From the NCBI GenBank assembly GCA_021828055.1, contig JAKATH010000001.1:80707-122318 (forward strand): a DNA stretch of 41,612 nt, written 5' to 3'. Within the stretch, counting starts at the first letter, position 1. Every line of letters begins with the position of its first letter. Below, one piece after another: positions 38,916 to 41,612 of this stretch. The position numbers were made by a program, and so were the translations under genes. The notes under the pieces were generated by a model. That model did no database searches and was not told the origin of the DNA. It saw nothing but the letters and a program-made list of their open reading frames with translations. Source of the stretch: Actinomycetes bacterium (GTDB lineage Bacteria > Actinomycetota > Acidimicrobiia > Acidimicrobiales > RAAP-2).

Positions 38916-39574
38916 GGAGCGCCGGCCTCTCTTCCTGCGTCGCCTCTCGCGCCGACGAGCCTGGCGGCTTCTCGCCGCGCGAGCACCTCGAGGTACTCGC
39001 GAACGGGCTCGATCGAATACCTGACCTTCACGACCCCTTCTTCGAAGCTGGTCGTCACGGGGAACCCGGTCTTGGCGAACATCTCGAGCATCGGGGCGTT
39101 CTCCGTGAGCGTGTCGGCCACGAACACCCCGATCCCCTGGACGCGAGCCGCCCGCGCGAGCTCGTCCGCGAGCAGCGTGCCGATCCCCAGGTTCTGGTAG
39201 GAGTCCTCGACGACGAACGCCACCTCGGCTTCGTCGGTGCCCTCCACCCGATCGTACCGGCCGACCGCGACGAGCCGGTCCTCCGCCAGCACGATCAGCG
39301 CGAGCCGAGCTGCGTAGTCCACGTGGGTGAAGCGCTCCACCTCTCGGGCGCTGAGCTCGGGGTGGAAATTGAAGAAGCGCAAGTAGACAGACTGCGGCGA
39401 CAGCGACGCGTGGAACTTCACCAGCATTGCCGCGTCGTCAGGAAGGATCGGGCGGACGTGCACCACCTGTCCGTCGCCGATCCGCGCGTCGCGCTCCCAC
39501 TTGCTCGGGTTCTCCGAGCCATCCGGCACGGTGACTCTCACGATCGTCCGCGACACCACGGTGCAGGATCGCAC
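38909..39574 (-). CDS. GNAT acetyltransferase, Pat-like protein acetyltransferase domain
   Basis: The product is 221 residues. The sequence follows the GNAT domain of bacterial protein acetyltransferases: VRPILPDDAAMLVKFHASLS, VYLRFFNFHPELS, VGRYDRV, EAEVAFVVEDSYQNLGIGTLL (acetyl-CoA pyrophosphate loop QxxGxG), and FAKTGFPV. The cyclic-nucleotide domain of mycobacterial Pat and the acyl-CoA synthetase domain of E. coli PatZ are absent. It overlaps the deacetylase by 7 bp. Several GTG codons lie within the first 15 codons (39574 is the longest), so the exact start is uncertain. An IS110-type element lies about 75 bp upstream. Confidence 0.85.
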
Positions 39575-39595
39575 ACAGACGGCTCAGTGACGATG

Positions 39596-39613
39596 GAACG
39601 GCTGGCGCCGTTC
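39596..39613. promoter_or_regulatory. Inverted repeat upstream of the GNAT gene
   Basis: GAACGGC-TGGC-GCCGTTC, a perfect 7-bp inverted repeat with a 4-bp centre, lies 22 bp before the longest GNAT start and 36 bp outside the left inverted repeat of the IS. It could be an operator of the GNAT-deacetylase pair or a hairpin recognised as a target. Confidence 0.4.
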
Positions 39614-39676
39614 AGCAAAGGTTGATCCAGCGTGGGTCACCGTATTGGGCGGTGCCACATACTGAAGGAGCCAGCC

Positions 39677-40777
39677 ATGTTCCATCATCAGTCCCAGTCT
39701 GGCACGACGTTCGTCGGGCTTGACGTCCACAAGAGTTCCATCACCTCAGCCGTTCTCGTCCCCGGCGCCGATACCGCCGTGGTCGACCGGTTCTTCCCCG
39801 ACGAGCCGTCCATCAGGCGCTTTGTGAGCGGGCTCGGAGACCCCGGGGCGGTTTCGGTCTGCTACGAGGCCGGCCCCACCGGCTACTCCCTGGCCCGGCT
39901 GCTCGGGGGCTGGGGAGTCGCCTGCGAGGTCATCGCCCCCTCGCTCATCCCCGTCGCCGCCGGCGCCCGGGTGAAGACCGACCGCCGCGACGCCCGGCGC
40001 CTGGCCGAGCTCCACCGGGCGGGCCAGCTCACCGCGGTGCGGATGCCGACCGAGGCCGAAGAGGCGATCCGGGACCTGTGCCGGACGAGAAGCGACCTGG
40101 TCACCGACCGGGTCCGGGCCCGGCACCGCCTGGTCAAGTTCCTCCTCCGCCACAACGTGGTGTTCCGAGACGGGGTGCACTGGACCATGCGCCACGAGGC
40201 GTGGCTGGCCAAGGTCACCTTCAGTGACGAGGCCCTCACCCGCACCTACGCCCGCTACCGCTCGGTGCTCTCGGGGATCGAGGTCGAGCTGGCCGCGGTC
40301 GAGGCCGATCTCAAGTGCTACCTCGACCAAGGCCCGTTCGCCGAGGCGGTGGCCCGGCTCGCCGCCTACCGCGGCGTGACCGAGCTCGGGGCCCTGTCGC
40401 TCGCCGCCGAGGTGGGTGACTGGGCCCGGTTCCCCCGTGCCAGCTCCTTCATGGGCTTCTGTGGGCTCACCCCGGCCGAGTACTCCTCGGGGGACCGCAC
40501 CAGGCGGGGGCGGATCACCAAGACCGGCAACGTCCACCTGCGCACCGCCCTCGTCGAGTCGGCCTGGTCCTACCAGCACCGCCCGGCCGCCGGCGCCGTC
40601 ATTCGCCGCCGCCAGGCCCGGGCCACCGATGAGACGATCGCCCGGGCCTGGAAGGCCCAGGTCCACCTCACGGCCAAGTTCCGCCGCCTGGCGGCCACCA
40701 AGAGCTCACGCAACGTCGTGGTGACCGCGGTGGCTCGGGAGCTGGCGGGCTTCTTGTGGGCCGAGATGGTCGCCTGA
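39677..40777 (+). CDS. IS110-family transposase (DEDD RuvC-like plus serine domain)
   Basis: The product is 366 residues. The N-terminal DEDD domain has D16 in FVGLDVHK, E64 in CYEAGPTG, and D102/D105 in KTDRRDARRLAEL. The C-terminal Transposase_20 domain includes the sequence ASSFMGFCGLTPAEYSSGD, with the catalytic Ser at about 270-271, and KTGNVHLRTALVESAW. IS110 recombinases act with an RNA guide encoded in a non-coding end of the element. ATG 39677 has AAGGAG upstream. The frame is intact with no stop or frameshift, so the copy may be active. Confidence 0.95.
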   Translation: MFHHQSQSGTTFVGLDVHKSSITSAVLVPGADTAVVDRFFPDEPSIRRFVSGLGDPGAVSVCYEAGPTGYSLARLLGGWGVACEVIAPSLIPVAAGARVKTDRRDARRLAELHRAGQLTAVRMPTEAEEAIRDLCRTRSDLVTDRVRARHRLVKFLLRHNVVFRDGVHWTMRHEAWLAKVTFSDEALTRTYARYRSVLSGIEVELAAVEADLKCYLDQGPFAEAVARLAAYRGVTELGALSLAAEVGDWARFPRASSFMGFCGLTPAEYSSGDRTRRGRITKTGNVHLRTALVESAWSYQHRPAAGAVIRRRQARATDETIARAWKAQVHLTAKFRRLAATKSSRNVVVTAVARELAGFLWAEMVA

Positions 40778-40914
40778 CATGCCAACCATCCAGCTCGCCC
40801 GACCCTCGGCGGGGTCGTGAGCGAGGCCTCCACCATGCACCGGGCCGCCGCCGCGGCAGAGAAGATCCCCGTTTCGGCTGTGCGAACCCGGGCCCTCGTG
40901 CCCGGACGCGAACT
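40778..40914 (+). ncRNA. Candidate guide (seek/bridge) RNA region of the IS110-family element
   Basis: These 137 bases between the transposase stop and the right inverted repeat have no gene. Stems are visible: CGACCC-TCGGCG-GGGTCG at 40800-40817 and CCGGGC-CCTCGT-GCCCGG at 40888-40905. In IS1111-type elements the guide RNA is encoded in this position. I cannot identify the guide loops or match them to the flanks, so this is a location prediction only. Confidence 0.4.
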
Positions 40915-41068
40915 CAGTGAGGGGCACCGTTCTGCGCATCGTCATCTTGCGGTCCCAACCCGCGAACATCAGCGTGGCGGTTCGTCGAACCGCACCAGTG
41001 TCCCGGTGCATGGTCGGGTTCTCGATCGCTCACCGCCGAGCGGCACGGGGAGGGCGTAGCAGCCGCCA

Positions 41069-41128
41069 CCCCTGGGTCAAGACCGTTCGTCCTCGCTTCG
41101 CTGCGGGCGCTCCGTCTTGACCCAGGGG
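41069..41128. repeat. 15-bp perfect inverted repeat with a 30-nt loop
   Basis: CCCCTGGGTCAAGAC at 41069-41083 and its exact complement at 41114-41128. It could be a terminator for the small gene on the minus strand (stop at 41235, 107 bp away), or the ends of a 60-bp miniature repeat. No target duplication is visible next to it. Confidence 0.7.
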
Positions 41129-41156
41129 ACCCCGTCGCCTGCCAACGAGCAGCTAT

Positions 41157-41179
41157 GCGCTGAACCTCTGGTTCAGCGC
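41157..41179. terminator. Compact hairpin downstream of the small minus-strand gene
   Basis: GCGCTGAACC-TCT-GGTTCAGCGC, a perfect 10-bp stem with a 3-nt loop, 56 nt after the stop of the 86-residue gene. On the plus strand it is followed by GTCCGAAAAC. It is a plausible terminator of that gene; there is no U tract on the minus strand. Confidence 0.5.
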
Positions 41180-41234
41180 GTCCGAAAACCGCCCGGAGAA
41201 CGATCCACGCCAGGGGTTGACATTCCGTTCCACA

Positions 41235-41495
41235 TCAGCCGGCGGACGACCAGACGATCTCGACGAGGTGCCGCACCCTCACGGCTTCAGCCACCTCCTG
41301 TCGGAGCCGCCGGCCGAACTCCTCGTCCTCGCCCCGTCTGCGCAGCGTGTGCACTCGGACGTGGACCGCGCCCCCCCAGCCGTCCCTGATGTCGACCCTC
41401 GTCACCACGCCCTCGGCGGTGTCCGGGATCGTCCGTGCCACGGCCTCCAGCACCTCGCGCGTCGTCAGGCCGCCAACCACCAGCCGCTCCGACAC
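41235..41495 (-). CDS. Small hypothetical protein
   Basis: The product is 86 residues. It has an alpha/beta look: LTTREVLEAVARTI helix, GVVTRVDIRDGWGGAVHVRVHTL strands, then FGRRLRQEVAEAVRV helix and a VEIVW strand. The pattern is loosely like Asp23/DUF322 proteins, but I would not assign it. GTG 41495 begins the gene; its ribosome site is weak. An open frame with stop at 41535-41537 enters from the right edge on the same strand, but only 25 codons are visible. Confidence 0.55.
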   Translation of the reverse strand: MSERLVVGGLTTREVLEAVARTIPDTAEGVVTRVDIRDGWGGAVHVRVHTLRRRGEDEEFGRRLRQEVAEAVRVRHLVEIVWSSAG

Positions 41496-41612
41496 GTGCC
41501 CATCGGGAGATGCTGCCGACTCGCCACGTCACGCTCACAGGGTCGAAGGTCCCGATCCCGCCGATCGGATCCGGGTCGGGGCCGCGGCCAGGCGCGGCCG
41601 TCCTTCCGCCTC

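What the first reader, a model, noticed from the sequence alone, without database searches (positions are those of the whole stretch)
39650..40936. Intact IS110/IS1111-type element with recoverable ends and a likely guide-RNA segment
Sub-terminal repeats (12 of 15 matching) define the element to within a few bases. The transposase is intact, and 137 bases after it contain stems and no gene, where IS1111-type elements encode their guide RNA. Such RNA-guided recombinases are of strong current interest, and this lineage's guide is probably undescribed.
Basis: partly seen in the sequence, partly recalled or inferred. Interest (0 to 1): 0.6.

Follow-up and report, generated by a model that had tools for sequence, protein, structure and literature searches.

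The report
RNA-guided insertion sequence, ends corrected
This is an intact mobile element of the IS1111 type, about 1.65 kb rather than 1.29 kb, whose own RNA carries short guide stretches matching both the site it sits in and its own ends, so it is a well-supported new member of a known class of RNA-guided DNA recombinases.

Summary
An empty site in a congeneric genome and 13 full copies put the element at 39,586-41,236 (1,651 bp). The true sub-terminal repeats are TGGAACGG / CCGTTCCA (39,594-39,601 / 41,225-41,232), with the 7-bp-left, 3-bp-right asymmetry of IS1111. The transposase (366 aa) is intact. The 3' non-coding region is 457 nt, not 137. It holds a covariation-supported RNA (40,822-41,024) with a target loop and a donor loop. 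One target guide (40,871-40,880) is complementary to the right flank plus core, copy by copy: 48 of 52 positions next to the core match in 13 copies at different sites (0 of 20,000 permutations). It holds again in 6 of 8 copies outside that set, including Paenibacillus and Paraburkholderia (p = 3.5e-5). The second target guide follows the left flank over 4 nt. A donor guide follows the right end through lineage-specific changes. So this is an IS1111-group bridge/seekRNA element: a new member of a known kind. Side findings: landing on stop codons, and 28-bp solo copies of the left tip.

The parts
39586..41236 (+). whole insertion sequence, 1,651 bp, by the IS1111 7/3 convention; the exact register is ambiguous by up to 4 bases because TCAG occurs at both junctions
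   Evidence: empty site in congeneric genome G009; copies at other loci share exactly this DNA
39586..39592 (+). left terminal extension AGTGACG (7 bp)
39593..39602 (+). left sub-terminal inverted repeat ATGGAACGGC (8 of 10 match the right repeat; TGGAACGG identical)
39596..39613 (+). palindrome GAACGGCTGGCGCCGTTC in the left end; relatives carry variant hairpins here; also found as solo/tandem copies elsewhere
39677..40777 (+). transposase, DEDD RuvC-like plus PF02371 domain, 366 aa, intact, with GLTPAEYSSG motif (GTG start at 39632 also possible)
40778..41234 (+). 3' non-coding region, 457 nt (415-474 nt, counted to the end of the right core, in 15 full copies)
40822..41024 (+). guide (bridge/seek) RNA with outer stem P1 40822-40844/41002-41024 and inner stem P2 40848-40855/40973-40980
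   Evidence: RNAalifold and pair counts: 94.7% of cells paired, 16 pairs with double changes, 0/500 shuffles as high; model R1 (40845-40983) E = 1.9e-26
40871..40880 (+). target guide A (right target guide) GTTTCGGCTG, complementary to top strand of right flank plus core (rc = CGGCTGA)
40911..40920 (+). target guide B (left target guide) AACTCAGTGA, same strand as left flank plus core (CTCAG)
   Evidence: last 4 nt 45/48 vs 31.6 expected, z = 5.2
40936..40947 (+). donor guide C GCATCGTCATCT, complementary to the element's left tip TGACGATG (8 nt)
   Evidence: direct match in the 85% clade; not significant over all copies
40948..40964 (+). hairpin TGCGG-CCGCG separating the two donor guides
40965..40972 (+). 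donor guide D AACATCAG, same as the right tip CACATCAG; ATGAG and AACAG variants co-occur with matching right ends
41059..41142 (+). extra conserved hairpin domain between guide RNA and right end, not seen in the Paenibacillus and Paraburkholderia relatives; function unknown
41157..41179 (+). hairpin GCGCTGAACC-TCT-GGTTCAGCGC followed by GTCCGAAAA
   Evidence: sequence and alignment
41217..41222 (+). TTGACA, -35-like box in the right end; joined ends would place it upstream of the left tip (circle-junction promoter)
   Evidence: conserved in nearly all right ends; function inferred from PMC11187229
41224..41233 (+). right sub-terminal inverted repeat TCCGTTCCAC
41234..41236 (+). right terminal extension ATC (3 bp)
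41235..41237 (-). TGA stop codon of the minus-strand ORF 41235-41495, re-formed across the right junction (element TC + target AG)

Best explanation
An intact insertion sequence of the IS1111 group of the IS110 family. SHOWN by sequence: ends, sub-terminal repeats, intact transposase gene, a conserved structured RNA just 3' of it, and a match between its target loop and each copy's own insertion site. INFERRED from studied relatives: the ends join into a circle, creating a promoter (TTGACA of the right end reading into the left end) that transcribes the transposase gene and the RNA. The transposase binds the RNA. The target loop pairs with the two strands of a short target (about 2-4 nt left, core AG, 4-6 nt right). 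The donor loop pairs with the element's joined ends. The DEDD recombinase then exchanges strands at the core without target duplication.
For: Empty site with no duplication. Ends conserved in all full copies. 7/3 asymmetry and sub-terminal repeats as defined for IS1111 in PMC11187229. RNA structure supported by covariation: 16 of 45 pairs with changes on both sides, shuffles 6.9 +/- 1.4, slid versions 0-5. Guide A matches its own flank in 13 of 13 copies, 55 of 78 positions vs 21.3 +/- 4.4 under permutation, 0 of 20,000; the four positions next to the core match in 10, 13, 13 and 12 of 13. Outside the building set, in-register matches of 5-8 nt in 6 of 8 copies, permutation p = 3.5e-5, including elements from Bacillota and Pseudomonadota. 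Guide B last 4 nt z = 5.2. Guide D follows right-end variants CATGAG and CAACAG in six copies. Guide order (top-strand complement 5' of bottom-strand match) is the IS1111 order (PMC11187229). Donor guides sit in a multiloop, as described for IS1111 (PMC11208160).
Against: No experiment. Guide C matches the left tip perfectly only in the 85% clade and is not significant across all copies. Of the outside copies, L118 does not match its flank and L122 matches only with a 1-nt slip. The identical repeat is 8 bp, shorter than the 11-13 bp usual for IS1111. The transposase is 366 aa, against 330-350 for typical IS1111 transposases, and only 27% identical to IS4321 over the aligned part. Only one copy exists in this genome, so current activity is unproven.
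Confidence: 0.93

Rival explanations
1. The element ends where the reader put them (39,650-40,936), and DNA outside is host or an older nested element.
For: A 12/15 inverted repeat exists there.
Against: Copies at unrelated sites share DNA from 39,584 to 41,241. The empty site lacks all of 39,588-41,238. The repeat is at chance level (10 of 60 shuffles).
Confidence: 0.01
2. The conserved 3' structure is only a terminator or mRNA-stability element, and the flank matches are coincidence.
For: GC-rich hairpins are common in this genome; another terminator-like hairpin lies at 41,157-41,179.
Against: The guide A to right flank match is specific to each copy's own flank (z = 7.6) and repeats in outside copies (p = 3.5e-5). 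The structure covaries.
Confidence: 0.02
3. A decayed, no longer mobile element whose guide is a fossil.
For: Single copy in the genome; assembly only 84% complete.
Against: Open transposase, both ends, structured RNA and matching guides are all intact; a congeneric genome has the empty site, so the insertion is fairly recent.
Confidence: 0.15

Closest known systems
IS1111-group elements with seekRNA (ISEc11, ISKpn4, ISPa11; PMC11187229)
   Same: 3' NCR after tnp, sub-terminal repeats with 7/3 extensions, no target duplication, guide order top-strand complement then bottom-strand match, GL-P----SG motif, promoter-like box in the right end
   Different: Identical repeat only 8 bp; transposase 366 aa and distant in sequence; 3' NCR 457 nt with an additional hairpin domain; different targets
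IS621 bridge RNA system (IS110 group; PMC11208160)
   Same: Two loops, each with two guides, for target and donor; core included in the pairings; one donor guide apparently discontiguous (guide C TCGTCA-T-CT vs TCGTCACT)
   Different: RNA is 3' of the gene, not in the left end; donor guides lie in a multiloop; order of guides reversed; core AG instead of CT
IS110-family element of Paenibacillus cellulosilyticus plasmid NZ_CP054609 (L151), 45% identical transposase
   Same: 3' RNA found by the same model at the expected place, 8-nt guide A match to its own flank, guide D AATATCAG vs right end CATATCAG, perfect 11-bp sub-terminal repeats with 7/3 extensions
   Different: No extra hairpin domain; other phylum
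ISEc45 (E. coli, 39% identical transposase), nearest named element seen
   Same: IS110-family transposase; weak model hit (E 0.04) directly after the gene
   Different: The copy examined (L148) shows no recognisable right end, so its guides could not be tested

Membership tests
IS110 family (DEDD recombinases) | PF01548 N-terminal and PF02371 C-terminal domains | tested here: met
   3.9e-17 and 4.7e-19; NF033542 1.2e-64 above cut-off
IS1111 group | sub-terminal inverted repeats (7-17 bp) with 7 bp left / 3 bp right extensions | tested here: met
   TGGAACGG 8 bp identical, 8 of 10 with outer bases; extensions 7 and 3 if one outer mismatch is counted in
IS1111 group | longer non-coding region downstream of tnp | tested here: met
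   91 bp left, 457 bp right; 415-474 nt in 15 copies
IS1111 group | insertion without target duplication, orientation-specific site | tested here: met
   empty site TCAG single
IS1111 group | guide order: top-strand complement 5' of bottom-strand match | tested here: met
   guide A before guide B
IS1111 group | GL-P----S(t)G motif | tested here: met
   GLTPAEYSSG in P0001
IS1111 group | transposase in the IS1111 clade, 330-350 aa | tested here: inconclusive
   366 aa; 27% to IS4321 over 68% of the query; no tree with ISfinder references was made
IS1111 group | circular intermediate and junction promoter | not testable with these tools
   TTGACA conserved in right end only suggests it
bridge RNA system | target loop whose guides covary with both target flanks | tested here: met
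   guide A p < 5e-5, guide B last 4 nt z = 5.2; outside set p = 3.5e-5 for guide A
bridge RNA system | donor loop whose guides match both element ends | tested here: inconclusive
   guide D to right end met with lineage-specific changes; guide C to left end perfect only in the 85% clade
TIGR-Tas | NCBIfam NF052498 above cut-off | tested here: not met
   27.4 bits vs cut-off 100

The most novel reading that the evidence does not exclude
The 28-bp solo copies of the left tip (TCAGTGACGATGGAACGGCTGGCGCCGT|TCAG) that abut stop codons are footprints of RNA-guided excision: a deletion between the TCAG inside the left end (just after the palindrome, about 39,612-39,615) and the TCAG at the right junction leaves exactly this unit and restores the guide-matched right half-site, so the element can return. 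The five-unit tandem array behind the PEPCK gene would then record repeated visits.
Probability: 0.15. Interest if true: 0.6.

Novelty: new member of a known kind. Interest (0 to 1): 0.4.

Why it matters
It gives a fully delimited RNA-guided recombinase from uncultured Acidimicrobiia-related actinomycetes (MAGs), with predicted target and donor guides. It also gives a set of natural copies in which the right target guide has been rewritten together with the site. That makes guide-target rules (4-6 nt right, about 4 nt left including core AG) directly testable outside the studied enterobacterial and Pseudomonas elements.

Tried and rejected
Rfam over the window: no hit. Left-tip palindrome as a REP-like target: rejected, because the empty site lacks it and it is present in the left ends of all close copies. 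TIGR-Tas assignment: below cut-off. Guide C in a fixed register over all copies: several registers tried, none significant. One automatic extraction mis-anchored some left ends, so the sites were re-entered by hand. A transposase tree was not made.

Full report
OBSERVATION. The window lies in one contig of a 2.64-Mb, 84%-complete genome. Its relatives in the public set are MAGs labelled Acidimicrobiaceae, Acidimicrobiales and Actinomycetes. However, 10 of 60 shuffles of the same two segments contain at least one 12/15 pair, and the repeat does not lie at the ends.

TRUE ENDS. Copies at unrelated loci (L007, L009; 85-86% identity) share DNA with the window from 39,583/4 to about 41,241 and nothing outside. 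In a genome of the same genus (G009 contig 104) the two flanks are joined, TCAG being present once: window 39,300-39,587 plus 41,239-41,612 aligns over 415 bp at 88% with no gap at the junction. The element is therefore 1,651 bp. All full copies carry the right end TTGACANNCCGTTCCACAT[C/G]AG or a close variant and a left end NNAG-6 nt-TGGAACGG. With one outer mismatch counted into the repeat, the terminal extensions are 7 bp (left) and 3 bp (right), the rule given for IS1111 elements in PMC11187229. This places the element at 39,586-41,236. A Paenibacillus relative (45% identical transposase) shows the same rule with perfect 11-bp repeats ATGAACGAAAG/CTTTCGTTCAT.

TRANSPOSASE. 366 aa from ATG 39,677, intact, with both IS110-family domains, the GL-P----SG motif, and weak but significant similarity to IS621 and ISCro4 structures. 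Nearest named element seen: ISEc45, 39%. This genome holds one copy plus two distant IS110 relatives.

GUIDE RNA. The 3' non-coding region is 457 nt here and 415-474 nt in 15 full copies, counted to the end of the core. Alignment and RNAalifold on 13 copies give one RNA (40,822-41,024): P1, P2, a target loop closed by GCAGA/TCTGC and CCCC/GGGG and split by an apical hairpin, then a donor loop split by a second hairpin. On these pairs 94.7% of cells pair and 16 pairs show changes on both sides. Shuffles give 6.9 +/- 1.4 such pairs and none of 500 reached the observed value; slid versions reach 0-5. A covariance model (R1) finds the RNA in further copies not used to build it, and weakly but at the right place in Burkholderia, Paraburkholderia and Paenibacillus elements. 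A single-sequence fold is moderately better than shuffles (z = -2.6).

GUIDES. Guide A (5' side of the target loop) is the reverse complement of the right flank plus core. Window TTTCGGCTG vs CCGGCTGA; L009 TTACGCCTG vs AACGCCTGA; L007 TTTGGGCTG vs CTGGGCTGA; L061 TACATTCTC vs GACATTCTCA. Over 13 copies in a fixed register, 55 of 78 positions match against 21.3 +/- 4.4 under permutation, 0 of 20,000 permutations as high; the four positions next to the core match 10, 13, 13 and 12 times out of 13. In eight copies outside this set, six match over 5-8 nt in register, one (L122) matches with a 1-nt slip and one (L118) does not; permutation p = 3.5e-5. Two of the six are from Paenibacillus and Paraburkholderia. 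Guide B (3' side) has the same sense as the left flank; its last 4 nt including core AG match 45 of 48 (z = 5.2), beyond which there is no signal. Guide D (3' side of the donor loop) equals the right tip (ACATCAG). Copies with right ends CATGAG (L061, L096, L122, L095) or CAACAG (L118, L126) carry the same change in guide D, though these fall into few lineages. Guide C (5' side) is complementary to the left tip over 8 nt (CATCGTCA / TGACGATG) in the 85% clade. With core CT it would need one looped-out base, similar to the discontiguous pairing reported for IS621 (PMC11208160). Across all copies it is not significant.

MECHANISM. The anatomy is that of an IS1111-group bridge/seekRNA element. 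The order of the target guides is the IS1111 order (PMC11187229), and the donor guides lie in a multiloop, as reported for many IS1111 elements (PMC11208160). Circle formation, the junction promoter and RNA-guided strand exchange are inferred from those studies, not shown here.

SITE. The right junction (element ...ATC + target AG) re-forms TGA on the opposite strand. At the window the TGA of the minus-strand ORF 41,235-41,495 is retained. Coding frames that end exactly at the junction are also seen for RuvB (L050), a short-chain dehydrogenase (L053), a cell-wall-binding protein (L052), a PqqD protein (L093) and a Calx-beta protein (L097). Loss of gene-disrupting insertions by selection could explain this; I did not test it against an expectation. 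Some copies sit in sites without a stop codon (for example L061, L096).

SIDE FINDINGS. (1) Solo 28-bp copies of the left tip occur at one locus in each of about eight genomes, in this genome as a five-unit tandem array behind a PEPCK gene. At least four of these loci (L102, L107, L109, L112) abut a TGA stop codon. Sister genomes lack the array at PEPCK, although the intergenic DNA is otherwise divergent. An excision footprint is one reading; a miniature derivative or hairpin duplication is at least as likely. For comparison, IS1111 of Coxiella burnetii inserts into a MITE that carries a REP (PMC5896051), a different arrangement. (2) An extra hairpin domain (41,059-41,142) separates the RNA from the right end in this clade and was not seen in the other-phylum relatives examined. 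Its core also occurs alone in several genomes.

VERDICT. Ordinary in kind, unusually well resolved by natural variation. New member of a known kind; interest 0.4.

Noticed in passing
G000 contig 16:12,395-12,535 (L002 1390-1530, L112): Five tandem 28-bp copies of the element's left tip directly behind the stop codon of a PEPCK gene; sister genomes lack them.
   Followed up: partly
L101 (G023), L102 (G009), L103 (G008), L105 (G010), L107 (G043), L109 (G069), L098 (G161): Solo copies of the same 28-bp left tip, one locus per genome; L102, L107 and L109 abut a TGA stop codon of a gene.
   Followed up: partly
window 41059-41142; L066, L067, L069, L070, L092: Hairpin GTCAAGACCGTTCGTCC...GTCTTGAC conserved in this clade's right ends also occurs alone in other loci and genomes, function unknown.
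   Followed up: partly
L050, L052, L053, L093, L097 and window 41235: Right junctions coincide with stop codons of genes facing the element; possible stop-codon preference or survivorship, not tested statistically.
   Followed up: partly
L046 (G000 contig 90), L047 (G000 contig 17): Two other, distantly related (29% identical) IS110-family transposases in the same genome.
   Followed up: no
L011 and L024, 3' region: In these copies the extra hairpin domain is replaced by an unrelated hairpin sequence at the same place, as if the module were swapped.
   Followed up: no
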